Source of the DNA: Gammaproteobacteria bacterium
GTDB taxonomy: Bacteria > Pseudomonadota > Gammaproteobacteria > SZUA-152
Assembly: GCA_029882975.1 (NCBI GenBank)
Contig: JAOUJW010000016.1
Coordinates: forward strand, 1-64,000
DNA length: 64,000 nucleotides
Reading direction: 5' to 3'
Shown here: positions 1-39,518 of the stretch, in pieces
How the letters are laid out: each line of letters opens with the position of its first letter
Position numbering within the stretch: the first letter of the stretch is position 1
Made by a program: the position numbers and the translations under genes
Notes under the pieces: model-generated
What the model was told of the DNA's origin: nothing
Databases searched by the model: none
Seen by the model: the letters and a program-made list of their open reading frames with translations, nothing else

Positions 1-141
1 CTATGACTTCACCGTATGGAGGCTTGTACGGTTTTCTTGTCGTATGGGGTAAGCCCAAACTGCCTGGCGGAATACGCAAAAAAACGCTATTCCGCCCTAC
101 GGTGTTGCTGTTTCCCGGATTCAAGCTACGCTTCGGAGTAA
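1..141. repeat. Direct repeat, copy 1 (pairs with 351-502)
   Basis: Positions 1-126 match 351-476 base for base as far as I can read. After an 11-base insertion in copy 2 (477-487), 127-141 match 488-502. Each copy contains an inverted repeat whose arms GGCGGAATA / TATTCCGCC lie at 66-74 and 88-96 around an A-rich loop. The copy may continue left of the window. No convincing gene uses this stretch. Confidence 0.9.
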
Positions 142-162
142 CGCAAGGGGAATTCCTGTAGG

Positions 163-185
163 GTGGGCAAGCTTTTATTGCCCAC
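163..185. repeat. Short palindrome, GTGGGCAA/TTGCCCAC family
   Basis: Arms GTGGGCAA (163-170) and TTGCCCAC (178-185) form a perfect 8-bp stem. The same motif recurs at 39323-39345 and, degenerate, near 39555-39580, so it belongs to an interspersed small repeat family of this genome. It is preceded by GTAGG, as are several other members. Confidence 0.8.
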
Positions 186-248
186 ACGGGCCATAGCTGT
201 TCAAAGCACTTTTGCTATTCCTGCCACAACCTTTCTTGTAGCGGGTAG

Positions 249-322
249 GGCGGAATAGTCTCTCCCGGCTCCTGCCTTTCGCGACACTTGTGCGTCCTGA
301 ATTTCGGCTTGCGTATTCCGCC
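249..322. repeat. Wide inverted repeat, GGCGGAATA family
   Basis: GGCGGAATA at 249-257 is inverted as TATTCCGCC at 314-322, with a 56-base interior unlike the short A-rich loop of its relatives. It may be one element split by an insertion, or two half-elements. It sits between the two copies of the 1-141 direct repeat. No gene is seen in 142-350. Confidence 0.7.
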
Positions 323-350
323 AAGGAGATTTTACGCTGCCACATTAGCA

Positions 351-502
351 CTATGACTTCACCGTATGGAGGCTTGTACGGTTTTCTTGTCGTATGGGGT
401 AAGCCCAAACTGCCTGGCGGAATACGCAAAAAAACGCTATTCCGCCCTACGGTGTTGCTGTTTCCCGGATTCAAGCTGCATCCGCGCTACGCTTCGGAGT
501 AA
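351..502. repeat. Direct repeat, copy 2
   Basis: Second copy of 1-141, offset by 350 bases, with an 11-base insertion at 477-487. Inverted-repeat arms are at 416-424 and 438-446. It ends about 100 bases beyond the stop codon of the Wadjet jetD gene (minus strand, stop at 602). The remaining 503-601 shows no gene or obvious terminator. Confidence 0.9.
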
Positions 503-601: not shown

Positions 602-1792
602 CTATTTTTCTAACCATCGTCTGAGCTGTTCCCGAATATAGTCGGCGGATAGGCGTTCTTGTTCCAGGCGTGCATCTGGGGTATTTAGCAAGGTGTCATA
701 CAGTTCAATTTCCTCGGCGCGTAAGCGTGTGGGTAGTTTTTCACAGGGGGAGTTTTCTGTGACGGCACGGTGGCGGAATTGCCGATAGGTTTCTTTGTCC
801 ATCATAATGCTGTTCAGGTCGGGCATATGTTGGCGGGCGTCGCTGAGAATTTTAAAACCCCAGGTATCGATATCACCCCAATAAACCGTATTCTTGGATT
901 TAAACCAGGGGGCTTGTAGCCAGCTTACGTTAGCGCCACCACCGAAGATGGCAATGGTGTCATCCAGTGGCGGCAGAGCGTAGCCCGATTGCAGGTTTTC
1001 CACAATGATGAGTTTACTTGCCGGTAAAGGGGATTGTATCAGCGTTTGCGAGGAGAGTTGCAGGATGTTGAAGCCGCCCATTTGGTTTTGCGTTTTTTGG
1101 CAGAGCGGTCGAATGCTTAGCCAGGCATTGGGTGGTTCGGAGCAATTGAGCCATGCGGATAGTCCGCCGCTTTGGCTGATGTCACCTTGTGTGTGGCAAT
1201 CCATTAAGTCCGAGATCAGAGTGTAATGCTTTTCCAGAAACTTGGTGTCGACACCGACTAAGGGCAGCGCACGAAGATATCCTGCTTGACCCATACCTTG
1301 GTGCAATTGGGGTAGCAGTTGGGGGACTAATTCAATATCTCCCCTGTCCATTTTTTCCAGCGATAGTAAGTGTTGCACCAGCACCGGGTGTAACTCGTCA
1401 TTAAACGCCAGGACGGGTGCCATGATTTCCTGCCAGCGATGGTTTCGTTTCACGGCTTGCGGTCCCAGGAAGCGAATCAAGGCGTCCAGGTTTTCCAGAT
1501 GAAGCTTAACGGGAATGTCGTGTTGGCCCAGTTCCCGGTATTGTTTTTGCTCCCAGCTTACTTGGAGAGAAGTCGCTTGTTGCCATTGTTTGATGTAGTC
1601 GTGAAAATGACTCACCGCCTGCAGTGCTTGGGCACCGGTGGGTGCTTTTAATGAAACACTGAGCGGAAAGCCGCGTTTACCGGTGAGCCGATCGCGTAAA
1701 TTACGGGGATTATCCCACTCTTTTTGGCGCAGAATGTTTCGAACGGACTCGGGTAACAAGCCCCAGTCTTTTGTGTTGTGGCCGTCGTTCAC
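602..1792 (-). CDS. jetD: JetD, Wadjet nuclease subunit (DUF3322 + DUF2220, Toprim-like)
   Basis: 396-residue protein, last gene of a four-gene Wadjet operon. In this family JetD (MksG) is the topoisomerase VI-like nuclease that cuts plasmid DNA after the JetABC condensin has sensed it. The Toprim signature is readable: Glu265 in LIIVENLQSG and the DxD pair Asp307/Asp309 in YWGDIDTWGF, so the active site looks intact. The N-terminal ~200 residues correspond to the DUF3322 arm region. It starts with GTG at 1792, whose GTGA overlaps the jetC stop by 4 bp, indicating translational coupling. Length is normal for the family. The distal side of the operon is a repeat field, not another gene. Confidence 0.93.
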   Translation of the reverse strand: MNDGHNTKDWGLLPESVRNILRQKEWDNPRNLRDRLTGKRGFPLSVSLKAPTGAQALQAVSHFHDYIKQWQQATSLQVSWEQKQYRELGQHDIPVKLHLENLDALIRFLGPQAVKRNHRWQEIMAPVLAFNDELHPVLVQHLLSLEKMDRGDIELVPQLLPQLHQGMGQAGYLRALPLVGVDTKFLEKHYTLISDLMDCHTQGDISQSGGLSAWLNCSEPPNAWLSIRPLCQKTQNQMGGFNILQLSSQTLIQSPLPASKLIIVENLQSGYALPPLDDTIAIFGGGANVSWLQAPWFKSKNTVYWGDIDTWGFKILSDARQHMPDLNSIMMDKETYRQFRHRAVTENSPCEKLPTRLRAEEIELYDTLLNTPDARLEQERLSADYIREQLRRWLEK

Positions 1793-4700
1793 GCGGGTTC
1801 AGGACTCAGCTGATTCGGCTGGGAATTCGAATGAGAATTCTGGTGAGAGCCCAGCTCAATGCCCAAGTCAGTAGCAACAGTTGCGGTGAGTTCTGCATTG
1901 GCCTGCATCTTGTCCAGTTCTTCCCAAGTCACTTCACACAGACGGCTTTCGTGGGTTTCCACATCACGCTCTGCAATTAACAGGGAACGGGCCGATTCCC
2001 GCGCCAGGTTGAGGTTTTTATATGGGGTGATCAGATTAATGTGAATGTGCAATTCTTTGAACACCCTTAATACCCGTCGGCTTACCGCTTCTGCCGTGTT
2101 GGAGAAAGCTTCATCCAGAAACACCGTGCAGTAAACCGGTTTGTCGTGACCGTCCGGGGTTAACACATAGGCCAGACTGGCTGCCACAATGGTTCCGGCA
2201 AAGGATTCTTTTTCGCCACCGGATTTACCGCTGGATGACATTAATACATCGCGAATTTTTCCTGTTTGCGCTTCCACTTCTTCGGCGAAGAAAGTGAGTT
2301 GATAGCGCGGGTCCAGCAGTCGCAGACTTTCTTTGTTGTGTGCCGTGGTGCTATTACTGGCTTTATCCAGTAGGGTGATGACTTCCTGCAAGTGACGAAA
2401 GCGTAACTCATGGTCGTCGCTTCCCGCTTCGGACAAAACGCGTACTAACATGCGGTTGAATTCCTGCACGTGTTGAAATTGTTCCGGTTTAATGCCTAAA
2501 CGTAAATGCGAACCGACGCGAAACTCGGTTCGACACAAAACCCGGTTAATGACGTCGATGCGTTCACTGATTTCCTCTTTTTCCGCGTCAATCCGCGATT
2601 TAATACCGGCCAGGGAATAGGTGGTGTGTTTATTTAAACGTTCTTTGAATTTGTCGACTAAGGCGGGCAGGCCTTCGGCTTCCAGTTTGTGCAGATGTTG
2701 CAGATACTCGTCCATACTGTCCAGGCTGCGGCCCCAGTCGGAGGCAATGGTTTGCCAGGTTTCCTTGGCATAGAAGCTGGACATGATAGCCACGGCACGG
2801 TTACCGGCGTTGCTTTTTCGTGTTTCCGCTGAGTGATTTTGCTTGCTAATACTCTCTCGGCAGTGGTTTTCAAGTTGCTGAGCCGTATCTAGCTTGTCGG
2901 GTGTAATGGTACCAATGCGCTTGGTCAGTAGCTCCCTGACCCAATCTTCCAACCCGGTTTCCGCGATGTTCCAGGTCAGTTCCAAAGCGTTTTGCGCCGT
3001 TTCGATTTCTTTTTCGTGTCCGCCAATAACTTTATTCTGGGTGACTTTTTCCACTCCAATTTCGGCCAACTTTTGCTTTGCGTCTTCCCAACGTTGTTTT
3101 GCTTGTTCCAGATCACTGCCGGAGCTTTCCAGAGCCTGTAAATCCAAGCGTTGGTTTTGCAGGATGCTTTGCCAATGAGGGGCATTGATGTCCTGCCACT
3201 GAAACTCTCCGAGTTGTTTCCAAAACTGCGCTTTTGCCACCATTTGGTCCATCGCTTTACGCCGGATTTGGGTTTGACGTGTCAGCTCCCGGATCTCAGT
3301 TTGCAGTTGTTCTGCTTCGCTGCGCAGGGTGGCCAGCCGCAGTTTGTTGGAAAAACCCAACTGCCACTGACGTTTGTCGTCTATGCGCTGTCGGTCTTTT
3401 TTCTCAAAGCGGCCTTTGTCAAAGTGAATTAAACCCTGCTCGGTCAGGGAAAACGGTGTGCGGTCCAGCGCTTCAGTGGAATCCACGCAATGTAAATCAA
3501 AACGCTGTAAGTGTTGTTTGAGCCATTCCCGGTAAGGATGTTCTCGCCATTGCAGTTTTCTTAAAAAACCGTCACTTTTAAACGTTGCCGTGCCTTTGTG
3601 GGTTTGCGTCGATGTTGTTACGGCTTGCACACGCACATGCAACCCCGTGTGGCGTTGGTTCAGCCACCGAGTGATCAGTGACAAGCGGGCTTCGGGAACC
3701 GCCATGGTGGTGCGCAAGCCTCCCAAGGCCCGTTCGATAGCGCCCTGCCAGTGGCGCTGTTCCGGGTTGACGTCCATCAGCTCGCCGAGAAATGGTACAT
3801 CATCCGGGGCGAGTTGAAGTGACTGACACATTTCATCACGCAGACGTTGGTGCGCAATGTCGATATTGGAATTGGGCCGCGATGCGATAGCTTCGATTTC
3901 CTCATCCAGGTCTTTTTTGGTTTGCTGTGCCTGGGATAACCCGACAGCGGTTTGGGCAAAAGCGTCTTCCGCCGCTGTTTTTTCCTGTTCCGTCGTTTCC
4001 AAAGCCGTTTGTTGCTTGTCCAGATTGGCTTGGAAAGTGGACTCGTTGAGTGTGGGGTCCAATTCCAGGGCTCGAGTAATTTCCTGGTATTGGGATGCCT
4101 GTCGGGTTGTTGATTCCAGTTTTTCCCGAGTGCGTTCAATGTCCTTTTTCAGCTCCTCAATGCGGTTTCCGCCCAGATTCAGGTATTCTCCATGGAGACG
4201 TTCGGTACGTTCCCTTGCAGCAATTTCGCGCGCCTCGATCTGTTGTAAGCGTTGTTCCGCATCCTGAAGGGTGAGTTTAAGTTGCTGTAAACGTTCACTC
4301 CAGAGTCGATGCATTTGTTCAGCAAAATACACCGGCAAGCCTTCCAGTTCGGCGCTGAATGCGGCGATGTCTTTTTTGGCTTGTTCTAATTCCTCAGCCA
4401 CATCCGGTAGGGCTGCCAATGTGTCGCGTTGGGCGCGGGCATCCAATAAACGGTTGTGAACGCCATCGAGGTCGTCAAACTCCAATACCGCCTTGCGGGC
4501 ATGGTCGCGCACCAGGCTGGGTTCCAGTACCAGTTCTCGAATGAGTTTGGTCAGGTCGTCGATTTTTTTCAAACCCAGTGCACGGGATAACAGGGCAGGT
4601 GCGTTGCTGTTCTCCATGTGCAGCAATTTACGGTAGACTTCCTGATACGCAGCAAAGTTATCATCGCAGGACATGATGAGTTTGTCATCGCGCAGGAATT

Positions 4701-5235
4701 GTTTTAATGTGCGAGCGTTTCCTTCACCGAAAGCCTGCAGCATTTCTTCCAGTTGTAAATTTCTTTTGGCGACAACGTAGATTCGTTTCAAATCGGCCAG
4801 TGCGTTGCTGGATTGGGTCATCCAGAACAAGGCGGCGATACTGATCTGCGAACCGTCTTCGCTGCGATAAAATGCCCTGAGTCCGCTGACCGTGGCTCCG
4901 GCGCGTTTGTTTTGAGTTTGGGTTTGACTGCCATCGTGGGTACTGCCAAAGCTGCCGCGAATATATGAGATCAGGCTGCGGTCCGTACGGTCACCTTGAG
5001 CGGCGGCAATATTAAAATTCGCACCGCCTGCAGGTAAGAGCAATGCCATCAGTCCATCAATTAAAGTGGATTTACCTGCGCCGTTATCGCCCGTCACCAG
5101 AGTGCCGTGGGGATCAATGTGTGCCGTATGTAAGCCGTGGAAAGAACCCCAGTTATAAACGGACAATTCCTCCAGGCGGATTTGGCCAGCCGCAAAAAGA
5201 CCGGGGAAGTCGGTTTGCTCTTGATCAAACATCAT
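1789..5235 (-). CDS. jetC: JetC, SMC/MukB-like ATPase of Wadjet type I
   Basis: About 1148 residues. The ATP-binding head is split as in SMC proteins. Walker A GDNGAGKST is near residues 49-57, a long Glu/Gln/Lys/Arg-rich coiled coil fills the middle, and the signature motif SSSGKSGGEKES (about residue 1000) and Walker B VYCTVFLDEAF (about 1040) are near the C-terminus. Both ATPase halves look functional. The role known for the family is the loop-extruding motor of the plasmid-sensing condensin, with JetA (kleisin) and JetB (KITE-like). An upstream in-frame GTG lies at 5244. I prefer the ATG at 5235 (or 5232), which follows an AGGAG about 11 bases upstream. The gene overlaps the end of jetB. 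The C-terminal tail is rich in Ser, Gln, Asn and Pro and is probably disordered. Confidence 0.95.
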   Translation of the reverse strand: MMFDQEQTDFPGLFAAGQIRLEELSVYNWGSFHGLHTAHIDPHGTLVTGDNGAGKSTLIDGLMALLLPAGGANFNIAAAQGDRTDRSLISYIRGSFGSTHDGSQTQTQNKRAGATVSGLRAFYRSEDGSQISIAALFWMTQSSNALADLKRIYVVAKRNLQLEEMLQAFGEGNARTLKQFLRDDKLIMSCDDNFAAYQEVYRKLLHMENSNAPALLSRALGLKKIDDLTKLIRELVLEPSLVRDHARKAVLEFDDLDGVHNRLLDARAQRDTLAALPDVAEELEQAKKDIAAFSAELEGLPVYFAEQMHRLWSERLQQLKLTLQDAEQRLQQIEAREIAARERTERLHGEYLNLGGNRIEELKKDIERTREKLESTTRQASQYQEITRALELDPTLNESTFQANLDKQQTALETTEQEKTAAEDAFAQTAVGLSQAQQTKKDLDEEIEAIASRPNSNIDIAHQRLRDEMCQSLQLAPDDVPFLGELMDVNPEQRHWQGAIERALGGLRTTMAVPEARLSLITRWLNQRHTGLHVRVQAVTTSTQTHKGTATFKSDGFLRKLQWREHPYREWLKQHLQRFDLHCVDSTEALDRTPFSLTEQGLIHFDKGRFEKKDRQRIDDKRQWQLGFSNKLRLATLRSEAEQLQTEIRELTRQTQIRRKAMDQMVAKAQFWKQLGEFQWQDINAPHWQSILQNQRLDLQALESSGSDLEQAKQRWEDAKQKLAEIGVEKVTQNKVIGGHEKEIETAQNALELTWNIAETGLEDWVRELLTKRIGTITPDKLDTAQQLENHCRESISKQNHSAETRKSNAGNRAVAIMSSFYAKETWQTIASDWGRSLDSMDEYLQHLHKLEAEGLPALVDKFKERLNKHTTYSLAGIKSRIDAEKEEISERIDVINRVLCRTEFRVGSHLRLGIKPEQFQHVQEFNRMLVRVLSEAGSDDHELRFRHLQEVITLLDKASNSTTAHNKESLRLLDPRYQLTFFAEEVEAQTGKIRDVLMSSSGKSGGEKESFAGTIVAASLAYVLTPDGHDKPVYCTVFLDEAFSNTAEAVSRRVLRVFKELHIHINLITPYKNLNLARESARSLLIAERDVETHESRLCEVTWEELDKMQANAELTATVATDLGIELGSHQNSHSNSQPNQLSPEPA

Positions 5236-5941
5236 TAGCCTCACTTACTCCTGCGGTATTGTCAGCTAATTGAGTGTATTCATTAAACAGTTGTTCCAGG
5301 AATTCGGCATTGACTACATAGCGGATTACCGGAGTGATCTCAAAGCGTTCGTTATCGCCGGAGACGTATTGAATCAAGCGTTTTTCCTTCATGTTTTTTA
5401 AAGAGCTGTTTAGTTTACGTCGGTCGCTCTTGCTGCTGTTGGTTAAGGGCAGAAACGGCGTCAGTCGGGCTTCGATTCGGTCGATGTCAATAAAGATTCG
5501 TTGCTCGCCCGCCGTTTCGCGTTCCTGAAAATGCTTACGTAGCACCAGTAACAGCAAAGTGTCGTATAGTGTCAGGGTGCGGCGGGAAATGAGCGAAACG
5601 CTTTCCTCTTCATTGTCTTCGGTTTCCTGTTGTAACAGTACCGCCACTTCTGCACGCTCATCTACCAGTACCGTTAGAAACATATTATCCAAGTGGGCTT
5701 GAATGGCAGGCAGTTCCTTTTGCAAGGCTTTAAATAGTTGTTGCTTACTGCTTGCGAGAATAACGCCGTGACGCAGCAGCCCCACCAAGGCTCGGCGGGC
5801 TTCCACGGATAAGGGTTTGAAAACCGTTGTATCACCTGAGTAGGTGTCGTCGCTGCTATTTTCGGGCAAAGTCTCAACATCATGCGCCACTGCTGAGTCT
5901 GCCATTTCTGAATCTGCAATGGTTGAATCGCTGTGAATCAT
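5225..5941 (-). CDS. jetB: JetB, Wadjet condensin accessory subunit (DUF4194, MksE-like)
   Basis: 238 residues, size and position typical of JetB (DUF4194). In related MksBEF/Wadjet complexes it is the winged-helix KITE subunit that binds the kleisin JetA. The first ~35 residues are acidic and low in complexity. The conserved part follows, including LTLYDTLLLLVLRKHF and a basic winged-helix-like segment SDRRKLNSSLKNMKEKRLI near residue 180. The ATG at 5941 overlaps the jetA stop as ATGA (4 bp), and its 3' end overlaps the jetC start, so the operon is tightly coupled. The assignment rests partly on context because JetB is poorly conserved. Confidence 0.9.
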   Translation of the reverse strand: MIHSDSTIADSEMADSAVAHDVETLPENSSDDTYSGDTTVFKPLSVEARRALVGLLRHGVILASSKQQLFKALQKELPAIQAHLDNMFLTVLVDERAEVAVLLQQETEDNEEESVSLISRRTLTLYDTLLLLVLRKHFQERETAGEQRIFIDIDRIEARLTPFLPLTNSSKSDRRKLNSSLKNMKEKRLIQYVSGDNERFEITPVIRYVVNAEFLEQLFNEYTQLADNTAGVSEANDV

Positions 5942-7398
5942 AATACCAATTCCTCCAACTTCTGTGGAAATTGCTGGGCGCTCATCAGGTATCCGGGAAT
6001 TTTGGCAAGGATCTTTTCACCCTTACGATCTTCAATTTCCACCGTTTCTCTATTGTCCATCTCCGCGGCCCCTACCGCTTTGGCTACACGCAGGAATGCC
6101 ACCAGTTCTTCCAGGCCCGAGGTGACGGGTTGTAGTTTGATAAGCCCACCTATGCTGAGGGGGCCCTGTTGTTGCAACAAACTGCGCATACGTGTTGCTA
6201 CTTCAACGATTTTAACGGCATGCAGTTGTTCCAGCATGGCTTGGCTGGGAGTGCCACTGTTTTCTTTTGCTTGTACTTCGCTGGTATCCAATTGTTCATC
6301 GGGACTGCAGAGGCGCATGCTTTGGGGCGAGCGGACGCTGGTTTTACCACTGAGTAATTCCAGGGGAAGACATTGATTCAAACTAAACTCCTGGTCTTTA
6401 AAACGCACGGCAATGCGTTCCAGTTTCCCCAGTAACTGTTCCACTTTGCGGTTTTCCAAATGGGCGCCGCTCTCCACGTAGGCTCGCAGACTTTCCTCGG
6501 TTCTTCGGCGTACTTTAAAAACCCGTTCGCTTTCCCGAGTCAACTCGCGTACCAGTTGACCCAGAAAACGGTTTTCATCAGGCCGCAGATATTGAGCCGC
6601 GGCACGGCTGAGTAAGGAACGTAGTTGTTCTCTAAACTCCATATTGCGGTTCTGATCGCATAACAGTTGGAAGAAGCCTTCAAAAGCACGACCGGCATCC
6701 GAGTTGGAGAGCAGTTCTTCCTTTTCCAATAGATTTTGCAGCACTTCACCGCGGTTGCTGTCACTCTCAATCATGGAAACGCGTAAATCCTGGTCCAGTT
6801 GTCGGATTTCGTCCTCCACGCGGCGGAAATCACCGGTTAAAACGGAAGCCAATTGGTAGACTTCACGTATACGTTCCCGCTGTTCCGCATCGCTCAGTTT
6901 TTTGATAATACCCGCATTGAGGTCGTCTATTTCACGTTGTAGTTCGGCTTTGCGCGACTCCAACAGGGTTATACGTTCAGCGGAATTGGGGCTTAGTGCG
7001 GCAGCCAAATCTCGTACCGCATTCTGAACAATGCGCAAATGGGATGCGGTGGCTTTGTTGTCTCTTTTGTCCAGAGACTCGCAGAAGCGCAATGCCGTTT
7101 CGCAGGCATCGGTTTTGCTGAGGTGGTCATCCGATTCTCTCAACCAGCCTGACTGTATCCATTCACGCAGATAGGCAGCTGCGGATTTTTCGCTTTCAAA
7201 CCAGTCTTCTTCCCGCCATTGGCTTAAATCCAATTCCAGCGCCGCTTTGGCACGGCTGAAAACCACATCGTTGTTTTCTTCAAATAGTTGGGAAATGAAC
7301 GCCAGGATCAACGGCGCGTTATTGGCCCGCAGTAGTCGCCAGGCCGCGTTATCCTGTAAGCGGCGGCGGTAACGGGCGTATCGTTCAAGAACACTCAT
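5938..7398 (-). CDS. jetA: JetA, Wadjet kleisin-like subunit (DUF3375, MksF-like)
   Basis: 486 residues from the ATG at 7398 and first gene of the operon. DUF3375 proteins of this size are the kleisin (JetA/MksF) that closes the JetC dimer. The N-terminus MSVLERYARYRRRLQ and the following WRLLRANNAPLILAFI stretch are typical of the family. Central helices (about 150-330) look coiled-coil forming, and a C-terminal winged-helix-like part follows. An in-frame GTG at 7431 would add 11 residues, but a possible -10 box overlaps it (see 7430-7459), so I prefer the ATG. Neither start has a strong Shine-Dalgarno sequence. The gene is followed immediately by jetB with a 4-bp overlap. Confidence 0.92.
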   Translation of the reverse strand: MSVLERYARYRRRLQDNAAWRLLRANNAPLILAFISQLFEENNDVVFSRAKAALELDLSQWREEDWFESEKSAAAYLREWIQSGWLRESDDHLSKTDACETALRFCESLDKRDNKATASHLRIVQNAVRDLAAALSPNSAERITLLESRKAELQREIDDLNAGIIKKLSDAEQRERIREVYQLASVLTGDFRRVEDEIRQLDQDLRVSMIESDSNRGEVLQNLLEKEELLSNSDAGRAFEGFFQLLCDQNRNMEFREQLRSLLSRAAAQYLRPDENRFLGQLVRELTRESERVFKVRRRTEESLRAYVESGAHLENRKVEQLLGKLERIAVRFKDQEFSLNQCLPLELLSGKTSVRSPQSMRLCSPDEQLDTSEVQAKENSGTPSQAMLEQLHAVKIVEVATRMRSLLQQQGPLSIGGLIKLQPVTSGLEELVAFLRVAKAVGAAEMDNRETVEIEDRKGEKILAKIPGYLMSAQQFPQKLEELVL

Positions 7399-7459: not shown

Positions 7460-7972
7460 CCAGTCTAACTTATTGAAAAATTAGTATGTTATCTTAGGAT
7501 GGTGGCGTATTATGACTTTCGGAAAGGCGGGGGTTGTGGTCGATGCTGGGTGCTTGATGCTTTACGTCGGCTCGGTGGAATACGCAAAAAACGCAATTCC
7601 CTGTGGTTACGGGGCAATTGGTTCCGTAAGCAAGGTAGCCCGGATACAGCTTGCGGACTCCGGGGTACCGTCGAAACCGAGTAGCCGGTGGAACATATTT
7701 TTTCACGGTGAATCTGCGAAACCGTCAATCGTCGATGGGTAAATCGCGTCGAAGACTGGCCGTATTCTTCGTTTCATAAATTTGTTAAGAAGGGTTGGTT
7801 GGACCGGGGATGGGGGCAGGGGTTTATTGTGAGTCCGGGGAATTTGGTGAGTGATTCCCGGATTTCGCAGGCTGCTACGTTTCTCCATCGTAACTCTTTG
7901 CAGGGCAATTCGTTGTGTAGACGAATGGCGTAGCGTATTACAATGTGCGAAAGGTGGGGTTGTTGTTACGGT
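7460..7972. other. Intergenic stretch with a degenerate hairpin repeat
   Basis: No convincing gene is visible between jetA and the coiled-coil gene. GGTGGAATA at 7574-7582, followed by CGCAAAAAACGC and AATTCC, is a partly decayed member of the GGCGGAATA repeat family that also flanks the Wadjet operon at 1-500. The short open frames here lack ribosome sites and protein-like composition. Confidence 0.6.
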
Positions 7973-8905
7973 TTATTTCTTGGATTTATCGGCAAGATTT
8001 AAATCGTCACTCAATAATTCATCCAGGCTGGGTGGTTGCTTGGCCGTCTTGGTAGGACGAAATTGGTTGAGTTCCCGTTGCAGCTCACGAATGGTTTGCA
8101 TGTGTCGCTTGTTTTCGTGTTCCATGTTGGTTAATTTGCGGTTCGCTTCGACCAGTTTCTCTTTGGTTTTGGCAATGGTTAATAAGTCTACATCGGAGTC
8201 TGCGGGCAGGTCATCGCGATTGTGCAGCATGGCGTGCAAGCGATCGTTATCCTGTTCCAGCGTCTGTATACACAACAGCAATTGGTTTTGCGATCCCTGC
8301 ATTTCTTGGAGCTTGCGATTCAGTTCCGCCACGGCATCGGAGTTTTCCGATTGGGATAAAGACTCTTTTAAGGAATCAATGGATTCAAACTGCCGGCTGA
8401 TAATGGTGCGCAGTCGCTGAATATCGTCATTCGTTGTGTCTATGCTGACTTCAGGCACTGTACGAACGCGGTCTAATGTGGGTATATATCCACTGGATTC
8501 TTCCTCCCGAGGCGGTGTTGATTGCTCAGTTGGTGTGGGTTCTGTCACCGGATGGTGGCTTATGAATGTGGAAATTCGGTCGCAGATGTGTTGCCAATAG
8601 CTGTCGTTTGTTTGAGGTTCTTCCAACGCACTGATTTCCGACTTGAGAAACATCATACGTTTTTCCAGCAGATCGGATTGTTGTTGGGGACATTGTTGCA
8701 TTTTGTCCTGAGTTTCCGATATGACTTGTTCGAGGTATTGCTTAAACTGATTTTTGTCTTCCGTGATTGACTTAATTTTGATTTTCAGTTTTTCCAATTG
8801 CAACAAAAGGTTTCTATTTCTACGTACCACCACCACGGCGAACGCGATCGCAATCAATGCTATTTCGGCAAAGGTCAATACGCTCAGTATCGCAGATTGT
8901 GTCAT
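7973..8905 (-). CDS. Membrane-anchored coiled-coil protein, function unknown
   Basis: 310 residues. One N-terminal membrane helix (about residues 5-27, FAEIALIAIAFAVVVV) is followed by Arg-Arg and then by long heptad-like segments (28-75, 165-290) rich in Gln, Glu, Leu and Lys. The positive-inside rule puts the coiled coil in the cytoplasm. No enzyme motif is visible. It starts 9 bases after the stop of the vWA gene and is therefore probably co-transcribed with it. I do not recognise the family. It could be a structural or scaffold partner of the vWA protein and the divergent MoxR-type ATPase, but that is inference from position only. Confidence 0.8.
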   Translation of the reverse strand: MTQSAILSVLTFAEIALIAIAFAVVVVRRNRNLLLQLEKLKIKIKSITEDKNQFKQYLEQVISETQDKMQQCPQQQSDLLEKRMMFLKSEISALEEPQTNDSYWQHICDRISTFISHHPVTEPTPTEQSTPPREEESSGYIPTLDRVRTVPEVSIDTTNDDIQRLRTIISRQFESIDSLKESLSQSENSDAVAELNRKLQEMQGSQNQLLLCIQTLEQDNDRLHAMLHNRDDLPADSDVDLLTIAKTKEKLVEANRKLTNMEHENKRHMQTIRELQRELNQFRPTKTAKQPPSLDELLSDDLNLADKSKK

Positions 8906-8914
8906 CGGATTTCT

Positions 8915-10942
8915 CTAGGCGGCTTTTTTCCGGGCCTCTGCAGGTGCATCCGTTTCACCTTTACCATGCGCGGCTTTCATCTTCTTTTTACGCATCATAT
9001 AAAAAACACCGCCGCCAATGGATAGCAATGTAATATTGATGCCAAGGAAAATCAGGATTGCAGTCAATATGCTGGGGCCGTGTTCTCCTTCACCGGCATC
9101 GTGTTCATCAGATTCTGCTATGTCTTTGTTGGGTTTGTTTTTCTCCGTTTGACGATTGTCTTTTTCCGGTTTCTTACCAGGCTTTGTGTCCTTTTGACCC
9201 TGCTCATTGGTTTTGTTCTTTGCTGGAGTGTCTTTGGCGCTATCGCCGTTGCGTTGATGGTTTTGCATGGTCGTATGGCTGTCATCTTGTGTTACTTGGT
9301 TTTCCGGTTTTTTCGTTATGTCCTGAGAATCTACCGGTGGCGGTGCGCTTGACGCAGATGCGGCACCGGTGGCTGGAATAGCCGGTAATTGCACGCCGGT
9401 GTCTTGGTTTTGCGGAGTGGCCGGGGCAGGGGTAGGAACCGGTCCTGATTGTATAGATTCCACAGGTTGTTGTGGTTGCGGCGGAGCAACAGGTTCTATG
9501 GAGCTTTGGCTTGACTGGGGTGCATTCGTCGAGTGGTTCAGTGTCTTTTGGCTATCGCCACTGGACGGACTTGCCGGCTGTGCAGGGCTTTGCGATGCAG
9601 AGTCGGTTGTTTGTTCTGTCGTTTGTATGGGTTTTTCATTCTTAAGGCTGGGGTCGTAGACGCTAACCTGCGAGGTTCGTTCTCGCGAAAAGGTTTTGGC
9701 ATTTGCCACTGCGTCCAACTTGTAAATTCCGGCTGAGGGCAAGGCAATATGATTGATATATACTCCGTCGGTTTGCGTTACAGCCGGGTTGGGTTCCATC
9801 TCTAACTCATGGGTGCGACCTTCGGGGGTCAGTACTTTCAGTTGTATGGATACATTATCCAAAATGTTTTTCTTAGTAATAATTTTGTCGTTGTCTTCTA
9901 ACCAAGCCTTTATTAACAGTCCCTCACCAATCGCGACTGCGGATGGTTCGGCGTTTAATTGCATTTTTAGATCGGTGATCACGTAAGCCTTATTTTTACC
10001 GGTGCTGGAGCCCAGTTTCCAGGTACCGGCTTGAGGTTTTCGGATGGTAATTAAATCGAAAGTTTCTGCAACGAACCACTTAACATTTTTTGGAGGGTTC
10101 TTCGCGTTGAATCGCTTACCGTCCGGTGACGCCAAAGACAGTACGGTTTTCTCTGAGTCTTTGGATCCCACGACAGTCACTTCCGTTATGGCTTTGTCGA
10201 TCGTAAAGTTTTCACCGCTGAATGGCAGCATATTGGGTTGTTTGTTTTGTTCAAAAATCACGGCATAGACATCGTGCAGTTGCTTATCATTGGCTGCAAT
10301 ATTAAATTTTCCGCCGGTACTTAGAGCTATTTGTTCCAAGGTGGCTTGGTCCGATTCGGGTGTAAAAGCAATGGTGTGCAATTCCACGCCTTGCTGTTTC
10401 AGCATGGGTATGATTTCTTGTTGCAATCGTTGAGTTTGCTTTGCGGATGCTTGTGCGGATCCGAGGTCCATTTTTCCGTCTGACATGAGTACAATAATTT
10501 TTTTTCGATTGGGCATGGGATTTCGATTTAGCACTCGCAGGGCGCCGTCTATGGCTCCGGATAAATTGGTATATACGCCTCGATTGGAGATTTTGTCCAC
10601 AGCGGCAAACAGGGATTGGCGTTTCCTGTCCGCTTTTGGGGGCGTCAAATAGGCCACTGGATATCCTTGGTCGGAAAAACTGACCACACTGACACGATCA
10701 TCTTCGCTCAGCAAAGAAATGAATAATTTGGCGGCGGATTTGCGTAACTCTCGCGGATCGGTTTTTTTCATGCTGCCAGAACTGTCCATTACCAAAACCA
10801 CATCTAGAATCGGGTTTTTCTCCGCGTGAACCGGCATACAGATCAACGCCAGCAATAGCAATGACAAACCCAATGGAGTGGTGCGATTAACCCCAAAGCA
10901 TTGTTGGAAAATTGCCGATAATTTATTCATTACAGAGTCCAT
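8915..10942 (-). CDS. vWA-domain protein with signal peptide and C-terminal membrane helix
   Basis: 675 residues. A cleavable signal ends near MPVHA (residue 40). A von Willebrand factor A domain follows at once: MIDAS residues Asp53, Ser55, Ser57 in VLVMDSSGSMKK, with VLMSDGKMD and HTIAFTPESD further on, to about residue 235. A beta-rich region (240-430) follows, then a long Pro/Gln/Ser/Thr-rich linker (430-610) and one membrane helix (about 625-650) with a basic cytoplasmic end. The bulk is therefore predicted periplasmic. An alternative ATG lies at 10930. It is divergent from a MoxR-type AAA gene, and MoxR ATPases commonly act with vWA proteins, so a partnership is plausible. Substrate unknown. 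Confidence 0.88.
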   Translation of the reverse strand: MDSVMNKLSAIFQQCFGVNRTTPLGLSLLLLALICMPVHAEKNPILDVVLVMDSSGSMKKTDPRELRKSAAKLFISLLSEDDRVSVVSFSDQGYPVAYLTPPKADRKRQSLFAAVDKISNRGVYTNLSGAIDGALRVLNRNPMPNRKKIIVLMSDGKMDLGSAQASAKQTQRLQQEIIPMLKQQGVELHTIAFTPESDQATLEQIALSTGGKFNIAANDKQLHDVYAVIFEQNKQPNMLPFSGENFTIDKAITEVTVVGSKDSEKTVLSLASPDGKRFNAKNPPKNVKWFVAETFDLITIRKPQAGTWKLGSSTGKNKAYVITDLKMQLNAEPSAVAIGEGLLIKAWLEDNDKIITKKNILDNVSIQLKVLTPEGRTHELEMEPNPAVTQTDGVYINHIALPSAGIYKLDAVANAKTFSRERTSQVSVYDPSLKNEKPIQTTEQTTDSASQSPAQPASPSSGDSQKTLNHSTNAPQSSQSSIEPVAPPQPQQPVESIQSGPVPTPAPATPQNQDTGVQLPAIPATGAASASSAPPPVDSQDITKKPENQVTQDDSHTTMQNHQRNGDSAKDTPAKNKTNEQGQKDTKPGKKPEKDNRQTEKNKPNKDIAESDEHDAGEGEHGPSILTAILIFLGINITLLSIGGGVFYMMRKKKMKAAHGKGETDAPAEARKKAA

Positions 10943-11101
10943 TCACTCGAGTCCGTTATCAGATACATCATCGGCATGGCAGATCGATTATTTAGCGCCA
11001 ACGGTCGCCAAATGGCCGTAAGGGTTTAGCTCTAATGAGATATACGCGTTGGTCTTTGGAAGCTTTACACTGAAGGTTTAACGAAAACATCGGGAAAGTC
11101 T

Positions 11102-12142
11102 ATGCGTCCTGCATACTTACAGTCAGTTTTGGAACAGGAGTTTAATGCCACCGATGCCGGACACCATACCCCGGTGATGTTGTGGGGGCCTCCTGGTGTC
11201 GGCAAGTCACAAATGGTGATGCAGGTGGCTCAAAGGTTTGACGTACCGGTCATAGATATCCGTCTGTCACAAATGGAACCCAGTGATTTGCGTGGCATTC
11301 CGTTCAAAGTGGAGGACCGGGTGGAGTGGGCGGTGCCGGCCATGCTACCGGAGGTGAGCCGTCACGGCGAATCCGGATTTTTGTTTTTGGATGAAATTAC
11401 CTCGGCTCCTCCCAGTGTTTCTGCAGCAGCTTATCAGCTGATCCTGGATCGGTGCCTGGGGAACTACGAAGTACCGCAAGGCTGGGTTATCATTGCCGCA
11501 GGAAATCGCCAGGGCGACCGGGGCGTGACGTATAGCATGCCGGCACCGCTGGCCAATCGGTTTTCACATTTTGAAGTGGAAACCCATTTGGATGATTGGG
11601 TGGCCTGGGCGTTTGAACATCACATTGATGAGCGCATTATTGCCTTTTTGCGTTTTCGTCCCGAGCTATTGTTTGATTTTGATCCTGCGCATAATCCCGT
11701 GGCGTTTCCTTCGCCCCGGTCCTGGGAGTTTGCGCACCGGGCTTTGCAGAAATTCTCCCGCATCCCTAATTTGTTGCTGGGCGCTTTACAGGCCTGTGTC
11801 GGCCAGGCTGCAGGCATTGAATTACACGCTTTTGTAAAAAATCTGGATCAACTGCCTGATTTGGAAGCGGTCATTCGCGGCGAAAATATTGCGGTTCCCG
11901 TCGAAATCGATTTGCAATACGCTGTGGCCACGGCTCTGGTTGGGTTGGCGATTCGATCCCGCAAACAAGACAACAAGCAAGTGGTGTGGGGTCATATTCT
12001 GGATTATGCCCGGAAGTTTCCCCAACGGGAAATGGGAGTGATGCTGGTGTCGGATATGCATCGGGCGGTGGGGCAGGAAATTTTCAGCTTGCCGCAATTT
12101 TCCCAGTGGGCGGATTCGGTGGCGGAGTTAATGGTGTACTAA
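11102..12142 (+). CDS. MoxR-family AAA+ ATPase
   Basis: 346 residues. Walker A GPPGVGKSQM (about residues 29-38), Walker B FLFLDEITSAP (about 97-107), a sensor-1-type IIAAGNRQGD and an arginine-rich PLANRF segment mark a MoxR-type AAA+ ATPase. These hexameric chaperone-like ATPases remodel or mature protein complexes, usually with a vWA partner encoded next door. Here the next gene (30 bases downstream) encodes such a partner. The ATG at 11102 has a weak purine stretch (GGGAAAG) upstream. It is divergent from the membrane vWA gene, with 159 bases shared as promoter region. Cytoplasmic. Confidence 0.92.
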   Translation: MRPAYLQSVLEQEFNATDAGHHTPVMLWGPPGVGKSQMVMQVAQRFDVPVIDIRLSQMEPSDLRGIPFKVEDRVEWAVPAMLPEVSRHGESGFLFLDEITSAPPSVSAAAYQLILDRCLGNYEVPQGWVIIAAGNRQGDRGVTYSMPAPLANRFSHFEVETHLDDWVAWAFEHHIDERIIAFLRFRPELLFDFDPAHNPVAFPSPRSWEFAHRALQKFSRIPNLLLGALQACVGQAAGIELHAFVKNLDQLPDLEAVIRGENIAVPVEIDLQYAVATALVGLAIRSRKQDNKQVVWGHILDYARKFPQREMGVMLVSDMHRAVGQEIFSLPQFSQWADSVAELMVY

Positions 12143-12171
12143 GCCATACAAAAAGCCCAAACGAGAAGCCC

Positions 12172-13479
12172 ATGAGCGATGCCATTCACACCAAACTCAG
12201 TGCCGCCCGAACCCGTTTAATCATTGATAAACCTTTTTTGGGCGCTTTGGTGTTGCGGTTGCCGTTGGAGCAGGCTGACCCTTCCTGGTGTAACACCACC
12301 GCCACGGATGCCCGCAAAATTTATTTTAATGCTCACTACATCGAACAACTGAGCCTGGAACAAACTCAATTTGTATTGGCCCACGAGGCTTTACATTGCG
12401 CGTTGAGTCACTTTGCCCGGCGCCAACATCGGGAAAAGCACCGCTGGGATGTGGCTTGTGACTATGCGGTTAACCCCTTGTTGCTGGCGGACGGTTTGAC
12501 ACCTCCTCCCGGTATTTTGGCGGATGACGGTTTTGCCAATATGACTGCCGAGGAAATCTACCCTTCCATTGAAGATAACTGCCACGAACAACCGCTGGAT
12601 CAACATGTGTACGACGAATCCGGGCAGGGTTCGCAGCAAAACAGTGGGCACATGGCTCAAGGCAAAACGCAGGGCAAGGAGACGCCAGGATCGCAAGGCA
12701 AGGACCGAGGTAATGACGTCAACGCCAAAGAAACGCAAGCCAAAGAGCAAGGCCTCAAAGGGAATTCAAAGCAACAAAACCCGGGCTCCGGTGAGACCAA
12801 CGCGAAAGCCGCTGGTGCTGCTAAACCGCGACCTTTAAATCACACCGAGCGGGAAAATCTCAAAGTGCAATGGCAACAACGCCTTGCCGGTGCAGCGCAG
12901 CAAGCCATGCAAGCGGGAAAACTGGGCGGGGCCATGGCGCGTCTGGTGGATCACCTGTTGGAGCCCCAATTACCCTGGCGTAATTTGCTGGCGCACTACG
13001 TCACCTCCGTCGCCAGGGACGATTACAGCTATTCCCGTCCCAGTACCCGGCGCGGTGATCCGGCTTTGTACCCCAGTTTGCGCAGTTCCCAAATCAATGT
13101 GTTGGTGGTTTTGGATACCAGCGGTTCTATCGGTGATGTGGAGATGCAGGAATTTTTAACCGAAGTGGATGCTATCAAAAGCCAAATTCGAGCCAGAATT
13201 ACCCTGCATGCCTGCGATGCTCAGCTGGCGCCGGATGGCCCCTGGGTGTACGAACCCTGGGAACCGTTTCAATTGCCCCGGCGCTTCGAAGGCGGTGGTG
13301 GCACAGCATTCAAACCTTTGTTTCAATGGCTACAGCAGCAGGAGCAAGACCCGGACCTGGTTTTGTACTTCACCGATGCCAACGCGGAGTTTCCGCAACA
13401 AGAACCCCGCATACCGGTGTTGTGGTTGGTGAAAGGCCGGGGCAAAGTACCCTGGGGCCGACGGATTCAACTTAACTAA
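12172..13479 (+). CDS. Metallopeptidase-like / VWA-like protein (DUF2201 type)
   Basis: 435 residues from the ATG at 12172; the frame is open further upstream, inside the MoxR gene, but that is not needed. The N-terminal half has a zinc-peptidase-like HEALH motif in FVLAHEALHCALSH (near residue 75). A Gly/Gln/Lys-rich low-complexity linker (about 140-230) follows. The C-terminal VWA-like domain carries VLDTSGSIGD (Asp, Ser, Ser of the MIDAS) and VLYFTDANAEFP. This two-part architecture is the usual partner of MoxR ATPases of the kind encoded just upstream. Its client is not known. The pair is very likely one operon, followed by the DsrS-like gene. Confidence 0.88.
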   Translation: MSDAIHTKLSAARTRLIIDKPFLGALVLRLPLEQADPSWCNTTATDARKIYFNAHYIEQLSLEQTQFVLAHEALHCALSHFARRQHREKHRWDVACDYAVNPLLLADGLTPPPGILADDGFANMTAEEIYPSIEDNCHEQPLDQHVYDESGQGSQQNSGHMAQGKTQGKETPGSQGKDRGNDVNAKETQAKEQGLKGNSKQQNPGSGETNAKAAGAAKPRPLNHTERENLKVQWQQRLAGAAQQAMQAGKLGGAMARLVDHLLEPQLPWRNLLAHYVTSVARDDYSYSRPSTRRGDPALYPSLRSSQINVLVVLDTSGSIGDVEMQEFLTEVDAIKSQIRARITLHACDAQLAPDGPWVYEPWEPFQLPRRFEGGGGTAFKPLFQWLQQQEQDPDLVLYFTDANAEFPQQEPRIPVLWLVKGRGKVPWGRRIQLN

Positions 13480-13510
13480 CTGTATAAAACTGTTTAAGGA
13501 TAGCTTTTAA

Positions 13511-14617
13511 GTGGATTTATCACCGGAAGACAATTTAAAACTGAACGTTCTGTTGAGTCAGAATTTGCAGGCCGTGCGCATTGATGATTCCAAAATGGTG
13601 GTGCACGCTTTAACCAGTAAAGGTGAAGCTCGTATCGAGCTAAACCCTACCTTGCGTGACGATCAGTATGTGCGTCAGGTGCGGGAGTTTTTTTCCACTC
13701 ACGCCTTGGGTTCACCTGGCGGTTATCCGGTCTATCTGAAACGCTGGACCCGTATGGGACAGGCGCGGGAAGATAAGCTGGACAGTTTGCTCATCCTGGG
13801 TGAGCCGGAAGCGGTAGTTGCCGTGGCTCATGCGCCGGGTTTAACCGAAGAACTGGCGCGCAGAACCTGGTGGGCAATGCCCACCGCAGAGGTGGCGCGA
13901 AAGCTTCTTGCCAATGCGCAAGTGGCTCGCAGCGCCATTGGCGGCGAACTGGCCGGTTTTTTGTTGGAATACCTGCCCTTTGAGACGGAAGCGGCACACA
14001 TAATCGAGTCCATTACCCGTATTTTAACCCCCGGCCTGCTGGAGCGGGAAACGATCTTGGCTTTATGGAAACGGGCCGGGCGCAAGAGCGCCTATTATGT
14101 GGGTTTCATAAATGCCATACCGGATGATTTACCGGAGCCTGGGGTTGAACGTGCTGACCACGGACAACTGTGCTCGGCTGTGCCGGAGTCCGGGCCTATG
14201 GCTCAGATGTTGCGGCATCTAAGTTCTGCGGCAGGGCAACAGTTGCTGTTGACCATAAACCAGGCAATGCACAAGGCCTCTGATCAGGATATGGTGGTGG
14301 AGTTGTTGAAATCCATAGAACGTTATTTTCTTCCTGTTCGCCCTGCTACCGAGGCTGTGGTATTTAATTGCAGTGAGCAGATTGACGTTTTCGTCACCCA
14401 ACCGTCGTCAGTGCCCCAGGATCTGGCTCCGTGGGGGCAGCAGGTAGAAGCGATATTGCGTTTGGCCATGGTGAGCGAGAATTTGGCGGATCCGGTGTTC
14501 GCACAAACGGATGCAGTGGGATCGGTTATGCGTAAGAAACTCAAACCGGTATTTGATTGGCTCAGTGTGCAGATCGGTGTGTTGAGTCAAGCCGAATTCA
14601 ACCACACGGTAGCTTAA
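13511..14617 (+). CDS. DsrS-like protein (tentative), function unknown
   Basis: 368 residues, soluble, with no signal peptide. The sequence, for example LGSPGGYPVYLKRWTRMGQ and LTEELARRTWWAMPTAE, resembles what I recall of DsrS, a protein of unclear role encoded at the end of the dsr sulfur-oxidation operon in purple sulfur bacteria. I cannot verify this here. No catalytic motif is evident. The start is GTG at 13511 after AAGGATAG. It lies 31 bases after the VWA gene and its stop touches the next ATG, so it belongs to the MoxR operon rather than to a dsr cluster; no other dsr genes are in the window. Confidence 0.7.
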   Translation: MDLSPEDNLKLNVLLSQNLQAVRIDDSKMVVHALTSKGEARIELNPTLRDDQYVRQVREFFSTHALGSPGGYPVYLKRWTRMGQAREDKLDSLLILGEPEAVVAVAHAPGLTEELARRTWWAMPTAEVARKLLANAQVARSAIGGELAGFLLEYLPFETEAAHIIESITRILTPGLLERETILALWKRAGRKSAYYVGFINAIPDDLPEPGVERADHGQLCSAVPESGPMAQMLRHLSSAAGQQLLLTINQAMHKASDQDMVVELLKSIERYFLPVRPATEAVVFNCSEQIDVFVTQPSSVPQDLAPWGQQVEAILRLAMVSENLADPVFAQTDAVGSVMRKKLKPVFDWLSVQIGVLSQAEFNHTVA

Positions 14618-15187
14618 ATGGGGTTGCATTTCGCCAGAGTGTCCATGCTGGTTAAAGCGCAAGTACCCTTGCCGCAATTACAAAAAAGTCTTCCGGCTCC
14701 GGTGGAGCGGTTCGGGGAGCAGCTGGCGCAAAAGATCCTGGCGGAAGTTAACGCCCGGCAATTGGGTTATGTTCCGGCTCTGGATTACTTTCAACAACTT
14801 ATACAACAACCGCAACATTCGCAACAACAGACTACGATTGAGCCGTTTATGTTGGCGGCGGCAGCCCAGATAGCTGAGATAACTATAGCCTATACCAAAC
14901 GCGAAGTGCTCAATGTCTTGGCACCGGTATTTAGCAGTGTACACATCGAAACCATTCAAGTGACGGCCTTTACCTTGCCCCCGGTGAGACCGGGTAGTCC
15001 AGCCGCGTTGACCGATTTGGCTAAACACCTTACTCCGGATACGGCTAAATTTGAGTTGCAGCTTACGGTAATCCAAAAACAGGCTGGTGATGACGGAGTG
15101 GAACAAGGCGTCGCCCGTATTGCCCGGCGTTGGTTAAGTGACAAGTTCAGCGACTTGGAATTAACGGCAATTCGGTTGATTTCTTAG
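14618..15187 (+). CDS. Hypothetical protein, last gene of the MoxR operon
   Basis: 189 residues. The ATG directly follows the stop of the DsrS-like gene (TAA then ATG), indicating translational coupling. It is mostly alpha-helical in composition in the first 120 residues (QLAQKILAEVNARQLGY), then more strand-like with Val/Thr/Pro. No signal peptide, membrane helix or known motif. I do not recognise the family. Position suggests a role with the MoxR/VWA/DsrS-like proteins. Confidence 0.75.
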   Translation: MGLHFARVSMLVKAQVPLPQLQKSLPAPVERFGEQLAQKILAEVNARQLGYVPALDYFQQLIQQPQHSQQQTTIEPFMLAAAAQIAEITIAYTKREVLNVLAPVFSSVHIETIQVTAFTLPPVRPGSPAALTDLAKHLTPDTAKFELQLTVIQKQAGDDGVEQGVARIARRWLSDKFSDLELTAIRLIS

Positions 15188-15521
15188 TGGGGTATATAAA
15201 AAAATGATAAAGATTTGCGCTTAAAGTAGATAATGTGAAAATTACAAGTATAAAGGTGAATGATACACTGTCAATTCATGATTAAAAGTTGATACACTAT
15301 ATTGGAATTCTATTAGAGCTTCATCGATTCAGATAAGCACTGGTGGACTCGCTTTAGCAGCCAAGATCAAAAAAATGCTCGGATTTAGTGTCGTGGATGG
15401 TGCTCCAATTGCCAGAGAGCAAGGCCCGTTCGTACATCGCTCTAAACCGGCAGGTTCTAGTTATGAGATTGCGCTTTGGCCTTTCTAGGCTAAGGGGTCA
15501 TTATATCCTTTTGACGGAGTT
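15188..15521. other. Intergenic stretch between the MoxR operon and the kinase gene
   Basis: The first ~90 bases are AT-rich and could hold a promoter. From 15282 a frame stays open to a TAG at 15488 without a normal start (described separately as a possible gene remnant). No clear terminator hairpin is visible after 15187. Confidence 0.5.
15282..15488 (+). pseudogene. Possible C-terminal gene fragment
   Basis: A 68-codon frame ends at TAG (15486-15488). It encodes a protein-like segment with STGGLALAAKIKKMLGFSV and SYEIALWPF. There is no ATG before the Met in KKMLGF, and an in-frame TGA at 15279-15281 precedes it. It reads like the last third of a longer gene that lost its start. I cannot name the parent family. 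It may equally be chance. Confidence 0.3.
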
Positions 15522-18389: not shown

Positions 18390-18488
18390 CCAACGAAACG
18401 CCTGGCCCTTGAAACAAGTAGGCTCGTTACCCAGTCACCGGCGCAAAGTCTGCCGCCGGTCGGCGGGACAATAAGAGTAAGACCCACG

Positions 18489-19541
18489 ATGGAAATACCT
18501 GAGTTTGAACCAAAAGCCGAAGATGAATCCGAACGCTCTATCACGCTGCTAAAGTGGTTTGCCAAGGTGGCGATGGGAGCGTTTGTGATGACCAGTGCGG
18601 TGAGCATGGGCATTTGGGGCGCTTCTTATTACTACAAACCCAAATTGACACAAGCTTTTCCAGCTCCCGGTCGCATGGTGGATGTAGGTGGCTATGAAAT
18701 GCATATCCAATGTATGGGGCAGGGGGAGCCCACGGTGGTGCTGGAGGCGGATCATCACGACTTTTCAGTTCAGTGGGCAATGGTTCAGCCAGAGGTGGCC
18801 AGATATTCACGGGTATGTGTTTACGACCGTGCCGGAATGGGCTGGAGTTCCCCAAGCCCTAAACCCAGAACCAGTTCCCATATGGTGGATGAGTTGCATG
18901 CGTTACTGCAAAACGCCGGAGAGACGGCGCCGTATGTTATGGTGGGGCACTTCTTAGGTGGTTTGAATGCGCGCCTGTACGCACACCGTTTTCCCCAGGA
19001 AGTCAAAGGCATGGTATTGCTGGATGCCGCGCATGAGGACCAACATAATAATATTCCTGAATTGGAGGATGCCAGTCGTAAATCTGCGTTGTTGTTTAAT
19101 GTCATGCAATGGGCGCAAAAATTGGGTGCCTTGGCGGTAACGCCGGAAGCCATTCCGGACAAGGGGTTGAACGGCGAAGCTTTGCAACGTTATCGAGCGA
19201 TTTTGGCCACCAAGCACTATTTTGAGACTGCCAAAGACGAGGCAGATGCCTTGCCGGATAGTTTGAAGGAACTGCAACAGGCCCAAATGAGCGATCTGGG
19301 GCGTATGCCCTTGATTGTCGTGAGCCGAGGAATGAAAGCCGAAATGCCCGGTTTGTCTACTTCTCAGTCCGGTGAGTTTGAGTCTCGCTGGAATCAATTG
19401 CAGCAGGAGTTGGCGCAGTTGTCGACCAATTCGCGCCAAATTAGAGCGTTACGCAGCGGTCACTACATCCACCTGAGCGAACCACAGTTGGTGGTGCGCG
19501 CCGTACGCGAGGTATTGTTACAAGTGCGTAAGCAAGGGTAA
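18489..19541 (+). CDS. Alpha/beta hydrolase with N-terminal membrane anchor; nucleophile Ser replaced by Phe
   Basis: 350 residues. One N-terminal membrane helix (about 22-48) is followed by an alpha/beta hydrolase fold: oxyanion strand VVLEADHH, VCVYDRAGMGWS, nucleophile elbow VGHFLGGLNARLYA, acid-strand LIVVSRG and a late His in SGHYIHLSEP. The elbow normally reads GHSxGG; here codon 155 is TTC (Phe) where TCC (Ser) is expected. If real, the protein cannot use the usual nucleophile. The rest of the fold is intact and open. It lies 99 bases after the kinase gene in the same direction. A one-base sequencing error is an alternative. Confidence 0.88.
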   Translation: MEIPEFEPKAEDESERSITLLKWFAKVAMGAFVMTSAVSMGIWGASYYYKPKLTQAFPAPGRMVDVGGYEMHIQCMGQGEPTVVLEADHHDFSVQWAMVQPEVARYSRVCVYDRAGMGWSSPSPKPRTSSHMVDELHALLQNAGETAPYVMVGHFLGGLNARLYAHRFPQEVKGMVLLDAAHEDQHNNIPELEDASRKSALLFNVMQWAQKLGALAVTPEAIPDKGLNGEALQRYRAILATKHYFETAKDEADALPDSLKELQQAQMSDLGRMPLIVVSRGMKAEMPGLSTSQSGEFESRWNQLQQELAQLSTNSRQIRALRSGHYIHLSEPQLVVRAVREVLLQVRKQG

Positions 19542-39191: not shown

Positions 39192-39262
39192 GAATTGATA
39201 TTTTTTCGTATCAACAAAAAACAAATCCAAGCGACGATTTCTTGATGTTCTGTAACTTGTAG

Positions 39263-39287
39263 GGCGGAATAGTTTACGTATTCCGCC
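39263..39287. repeat. GGCGGAATA-family hairpin
   Basis: GGCGGAATA (39263-39271) and TATTCCGCC (39279-39287) form a perfect 9-bp stem with a 7-base loop, preceded by GTA. Same family as 66-96 and 416-446. Confidence 0.85.
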
Positions 39288-39307
39288 GAGCAGTCTCAAA
39301 TCACAGT

Positions 39308-39518
39308 TTTGTAGATACAAGGGTGGGCAAGCCTTTTTTGCCCACGCGGACGAAAGGTGATGATACAGTAACACTTTGTGCTAATCGCCATTTATGGAAT
39401 GCCGCTTAACTCTGCTTGGTGGAATACGCAAAAAAAGCTATTCCACCCTACCCAATCCGGAGGTTGTGGTATTGAAACTAGCGGAGTTGTGGTAACGGGT
39501 GTTGGTGTTGCATCAATG
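39308..39518. repeat. Direct repeat unit 1 of ~210 bp
   Basis: Matches 39548-39758 at an offset of 240, closely over the first ~140 bases and more loosely after that. It contains a GTGGGCAA/TTGCCCAC hairpin (39323-39345) and a GGTGGAATA/TATTCCACC hairpin (39418-39447) joined by a shared ~70-base spacer. Confidence 0.85.

What the first reader, a model, noticed from the sequence alone, without database searches (positions are those of the whole stretch)
602..7398. Complete type I Wadjet (jetABCD) anti-plasmid system
Four overlapping genes give the kleisin (DUF3375), KITE-like subunit (DUF4194), SMC ATPase and Toprim nuclease in the canonical order. All key catalytic residues are readable: Walker A, signature and Walker B in JetC; Glu265, Asp307 and Asp309 in JetD. 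Every junction overlaps, two of them as 4-bp ATGA/GTGA, so the subunits should be made at a fixed ratio. The system is known, but an intact copy beside an unexplained vWA/MoxR cluster is worth attention.
Basis: partly seen in the sequence, partly recalled or inferred. Interest (0 to 1): 0.7.

Follow-up and report, generated by a model that had tools for sequence, protein, structure and literature searches.

The report
Intact type I Wadjet anti-plasmid operon
The stretch holds a complete, known bacterial machine (JetABCD) that finds and cuts small circular plasmids; it is ordinary apart from a missing short sequence in one subunit (JetB) that in a studied relative touches the DNA-cutting subunit.

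Summary
The finding is right. Window 602-7398 (minus strand) encodes JetA-B-C-D in canonical order, all open, every junction overlapping. All four proteins match type I Wadjet families full length and the solved E. coli and P. aeruginosa Jet proteins. Walker A, signature and Walker B of JetC and Glu265/Asp307/Asp309 of JetD are invariant in all relatives examined. Codon changes show purifying selection. It is the only DUF3375 locus in this genome, on a contig with housekeeping genes.

The neighbouring vWA/MoxR cluster is unrelated: it persists without Jet in the same-genus genome G001, and related Jet operons lack it.

One small deviation: the JetB N-terminal FD motif, equivalent to the PA14 IFDR motif reported to touch JetD, is degenerate here (IADS). 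It is present in both nearest relatives and in 10 of 14 JetB tails of this subfamily; four separate lineages lack it, all with intact JetC and JetD residues. So the motif is probably dispensable or replaced. Plasmid restriction itself was not tested.

Known system; low interest overall.

The parts
5938..7398 (-). jetA, kleisin (DUF3375), 486 aa
   Evidence: Pfam DUF3375 E 4e-133; PADLOC JetA1 E 8e-223; PDB JetA 8dk1/8q72 E about 1e-53
5225..5941 (-). jetB, KITE subunit (DUF4194), 238 aa
   Evidence: Pfam E 2e-41; PADLOC JetB1 E 2e-89; PDB JetB E 1e-11; predicted core (pLDDT 59) ranks JetB 8as8/8dk1 first, Z about 12
5825..5941 (-). JetB N-terminal tail (residues 1-39, low confidence in the model) in which the FD[R/K/Q] motif of relatives reads IADS (residues 8-11)
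1789..5244 (-). jetC, SMC ATPase, 1151 aa; Walker A K58, signature S1008-G1010, Walker B D1044-E1045
602..1792 (-). jetD, CAP plus Toprim nuclease (DUF3322 and JetD_C), 396 aa; E265, D307, D309

Best explanation
A chromosomal, intact type I Wadjet operon. By homology, JetC dimers with JetB and JetA form two ATP-driven motors joined through the JetA kleisins; they reel in DNA, and when a small circle has been fully extruded the motors meet and activate the JetD Toprim nuclease, which linearises the plasmid. Shown here: gene content, order, open frames, conserved catalytic residues, purifying selection. Inferred from the studied relatives: complex shape, loop extrusion, cleavage of circular DNA. 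Specific to this copy: the JetB N-terminal FD motif is degenerate, so JetD is probably held or activated through other contacts (inference).
For: All four subunits hit only type I Jet models as best matches, and the solved E. coli GF4-3 and P. aeruginosa PA14 type I Jet proteins over nearly their full length. Catalytic residues are invariant over 8 and 15 operons; the JetD Glu265 column is the residue mutated as E248A in 8q72. Same A-B-C-D order in relatives. pN 0.15-0.28 against saturated pS 0.80-0.85 versus L023/L024, and dN/dS about 0.07-0.19 within that sister pair. Mechanism of relatives: PMC10586767, PMC12647877.
Against: No activity was or could be tested. The JetB motif reported to contact JetD (PMC10586767 section 7) is degenerate here. 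The AlphaFold model of JetD was too poor to use (mean pLDDT 38), so the nuclease rests on sequence alone.
Confidence: 0.93

Rival explanations
1. The complex has become a chromosome organiser like MksBEF, with JetD uncoupled because the JetB contact motif is lost, so that it no longer cuts plasmids.
For: JetB motif degenerate. [quoted passage not shown]
Against: jetD is present, overlapping jetC, with all catalytic residues and a purifying pattern. Three other operons without an intact motif also keep an intact JetD.
Confidence: 0.03
2. Jet and the adjacent vWA/MoxR/DUF2201/kinase genes form one composite defence system.
For: Direct adjacency: 574 bp between jetA and the coiled-coil gene, same strand.
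Against: G001, same genus, keeps coiled-coil/vWA/MoxR/DUF2201 with a methyl-accepting chemotaxis-like gene in place of jet; G004 has its jet operon on a different contig from its vWA genes; the 78% identical Jet operons L023 and L024 have no such neighbours within the 4-10 kb held on each side.
Confidence: 0.01
3. An operon at the start of decay: the JetB tail is the first part to go and the system is inactive.
For: The motif was lost on the window's own branch; the sister pair L023/L024 keeps it.
Against: No stop, frameshift or catalytic change in about 6.8 kb; purifying pattern.
Confidence: 0.03

Closest known systems
Type I Wadjet of Pseudomonas aeruginosa PA14 and Escherichia coli GF4-3 (JetABCD; PDB 8dk1-8dk3, 8as8, 8bfn, 8q72, 7til)
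   Same: All four subunits, catalytic residues; A-B-C-D order
   Different: Only distantly alike in sequence (phmmer E from 1e-154 for JetC to 1e-9 for JetB); JetB N-terminal IFDR motif of PA14 replaced by IADS
Wadjet operons of two gammaproteobacterial MAGs (L023 JASBSR010000025.1, L024 JAJFKE010000023.1)
   Same: About 78/64/70/58% identity for A/B/C/D, same order
   Different: Keep LFDR in JetB; different neighbouring genes
JetABCD on Pseudomonas aeruginosa plasmid pBJ86 (NZ_CP133756.1)
   Same: 57% identical JetA and JetB, same order
   Different: Lies on a 522 kb plasmid beside SAVED and nucleotidyltransferase genes; JetB keeps LFDQ
Type II Wadjet / MksBEFG
   Same: SMC, KITE, kleisin and Toprim nuclease; MksG matches JetD at E 6e-27
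   Different: All Jet hits in PADLOC are type I models, none type II or III

Membership tests
Type I Wadjet | JetA kleisin with DUF3375 | tested here: met
Type I Wadjet | JetB KITE with DUF4194 | tested here: met
Type I Wadjet | JetC SMC ATPase with intact Walker A, signature and Walker B | tested here: met
Type I Wadjet | JetD with DUF3322 N-terminal domain and Toprim acidic residues | tested here: met
Type I Wadjet | Operon order A-B-C-D on one strand | tested here: met
Type I Wadjet (optional feature, not defining) | JetB N-terminal FD motif that contacts JetD (reported for PA14; absent from several JetB groups, so not a defining feature) | tested here: not met
   also absent or broken in three other operons of this subfamily
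Type I Wadjet | ATP-dependent cleavage of small circular DNA, block of plasmid transformation | not testable with these tools
   needs the bench
Type II/III Wadjet | Best match to type II or III Jet models | tested here: not met
   only JetA1/B1/C1/D1 models among the Jet hits

The most novel reading that the evidence does not exclude
In this and a few other type I Wadjets JetD is recruited through a contact other than the JetB N-terminal FD motif, for example through an FD sequence at the JetC N-terminus (window JetC starts MMFDQEQTDF; the motif-broken L099 JetC has TDLFGTFDTG).
Probability: 0.12. Interest if true: 0.4.

Novelty: new member of a known kind. Interest (0 to 1): 0.2.

Why it matters
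As a Wadjet it adds one more intact operon to a well-studied family. If the repeated loss of the JetB motif is real and harmless, it shows that the reported JetB-JetD contact is not essential, and natural pairs (window against L024) could test how the nuclease is switched on.

Tried and rejected
A link to the vWA/MoxR cluster: rejected by synteny. A frameshift or wrong start hiding the JetB motif: all three frames read, none holds it. A JetC N-terminal FD motif as a general substitute: window and L099 (G163) have something similar, L098 (G105) and L100 (G048) do not, so left as speculation. Rfam and tRNA scans of the window: nothing. Promoter and terminator scans: no more than chance. AlphaFold of JetD with three sequences: useless. 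Papers on a MoxR/vWA/DUF2201 cluster: none held under those words. The primary paper on the IFDR motif is not held; I rely on a review. PADLOC matches to the 955 aa kinase and the MoxR gene are generic domain matches and do not mark a defence island.

Full report
Observation. The four genes are present as described: jetA 5938-7398, jetB 5225-5941, jetC 1789-5244 and jetD 602-1792, all on the minus strand, all open, each overlapping the next. Pfam gives DUF3375, DUF4194, AAA_29 with SbcC_Walker_B, and DUF3322 with JetD_C. PADLOC gives type I JetA, JetB, JetC and JetD models with E-values between 2e-89 and about 0, and no type II or III Jet model. Sequence searches of the PDB find the P. aeruginosa PA14 and E. 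coli GF4-3 Jet proteins for all four. In the alignment with 8q72 JetD, whose catalytic mutant is E248A, our Glu265 falls on that column.

Intactness. Over eight operons and then fifteen the JetC Walker A lysine, the SGGEKE signature, the LDEAF Walker B, and JetD E265, D307 and D309 do not vary. Against the nearest relatives L023 and L024 the synonymous sites are saturated (pS 0.80-0.85) while pN is 0.15-0.28; within the L023/L024 pair dN/dS is about 0.11, 0.07, 0.12 and 0.19 for A, B, C and D. So the family is under selection to keep its protein sequence; saturation means that the window's own branch is only bounded by this.

Distribution. The genome (5.18 Mb, 59 contigs, 99% complete) has one DUF3375 locus. 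Ten of 40 relatives have a JetA and 36 of 369 genomes of the class have a JetB (some of the weaker matches may be other DUF4194 proteins), in line with the 5-10% of bacteria in the review PMC10586767. The window's contig carries aspS and, by reading of the translations only, yebC-, ruvB-, tol- and queC-like genes, so the operon is chromosomal. A 57% identical operon sits on a 522 kb P. aeruginosa plasmid, and relatives have different neighbours, as expected of mobile defence genes.

Neighbourhood. In G001, the only same-genus genome examined, which has no JetA, the coiled-coil, vWA, MoxR, DUF2201 and following genes are present in the same order, with a methyl-accepting chemotaxis-like gene (named from its translation only) where jet lies in the window. 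G004 has its vWA genes on one contig and its jet operon on another. L023 and L024, the closest jet operons, have no vWA cluster in the DNA held. The adjacency is therefore local. Copies of one dispersed repeat (GGCGGAATACGC type) lie on both sides of the operon, at 60-100, 410-450 and 7574-7600, and at about 18 places in the genome; recombination there could have brought the operon in, but this is inference.

Mechanism. From the studied type I enzymes (PMC10586767; PMC12647877): two JetABC motors joined through the kleisins extrude DNA; completion of extrusion on a small circle activates JetD, which cuts without sequence specificity; linear and very large DNA escape. The complex is (JetC2 JetB2 JetA1)2 with JetD2, so overlapping genes do not give a simple equal ratio. 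These steps are inferred here from homology.

A deviation. The review says JetD contacts an IFDR motif at the JetB N-terminus. PA14 JetB carries it at residues 4-7. In the subfamily of the window JetB (the PADLOC model PDLC00499 is the best hit for the window and the three members checked) 10 of 14 tails carry an aromatic or aliphatic residue followed by FD in the first 30 residues; shuffled tails give 0.3 on average and never 10 in 2000 trials (the tails are related, so this shows conservation, not ten independent gains). The window tail reads STIADSEMADS where L024 reads PALFDRFRADS. No reading frame hides the motif. On the JetC tree four lineages lack an intact motif (window, G105, G048, and G163 with FFSM), needing four changes (at least three forced by well-supported branches), and the window's sister pair keeps it. 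All four keep every catalytic residue. The count is small, the four are not all equally clear, and the tail evolves fast. The simplest reading is that this contact is helpful but not essential, or is replaced. A JetC N-terminal FD sequence in the window and in G163 is a possible substitute but is absent in G105 and G048. JetB groups further away also lack the motif, so it cannot be a strict membership feature.

Structure. A JetB model from three sequences (mean pLDDT 59; tail 1-39 below 50) matches JetB of 8as8 and 8dk1 first and MukE next, which supports the KITE assignment, although the relative placing of its two halves is unsure (rmsd about 15). The JetD model failed.

Verdict. A known system, correctly identified, intact by sequence. 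New member of a known kind; interest 0.2, of which most comes from the JetB tail.

Noticed in passing
L029 (G010:C44) 8321-9658: A 445 aa open frame fuses JetA residues 1 to about 327 in frame to the JetD Toprim end (Pfam DUF3375 E 5e-126 and JetD_C E 5e-34), without jetB, jetC or the first Toprim glutamate: a deletion relic or an assembly join.
   Followed up: partly
window 7973-19541: Conserved cluster: membrane coiled-coil protein, vWA protein (TIGR03503-like part), MoxR-type AAA, DUF2201 putative metallopeptidase/vWA, two proteins without Pfam match (13511-14617, 14618-15187), a 955 aa Ser/Thr kinase, an alpha/beta hydrolase. MoxR and DUF2201 are 77-80% and 61-66% identical in G001 and G002.
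   Followed up: partly
window 1-502, 7574-7600, 39259-39685: Dispersed repeat (GGCGGAATACGC, with inverted copies), about 18 matches in the genome; a 127-base exact direct repeat at 1-127 and 351-477 marks the contig end.
   Followed up: partly
L096 (NZ_CP133756.1 plasmid pBJ86): A complete Wadjet operon on a 522 kb Pseudomonas aeruginosa plasmid, beside SAVED-domain and nucleotidyltransferase genes that look like a CBASS system.
   Followed up: no
L027, L028, L033 (G014): G014 has two different jetA end/jetB/jetC copies and one jetA start, each cut at a contig end: probably two Wadjet operons or an unresolved duplication.
   Followed up: no
window 11986-13479: The longest ORF of the DUF2201 gene overlaps MoxR by 157 bases; homology to G001 starts only at about residue 63, so the real start is later.
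   Followed up: no
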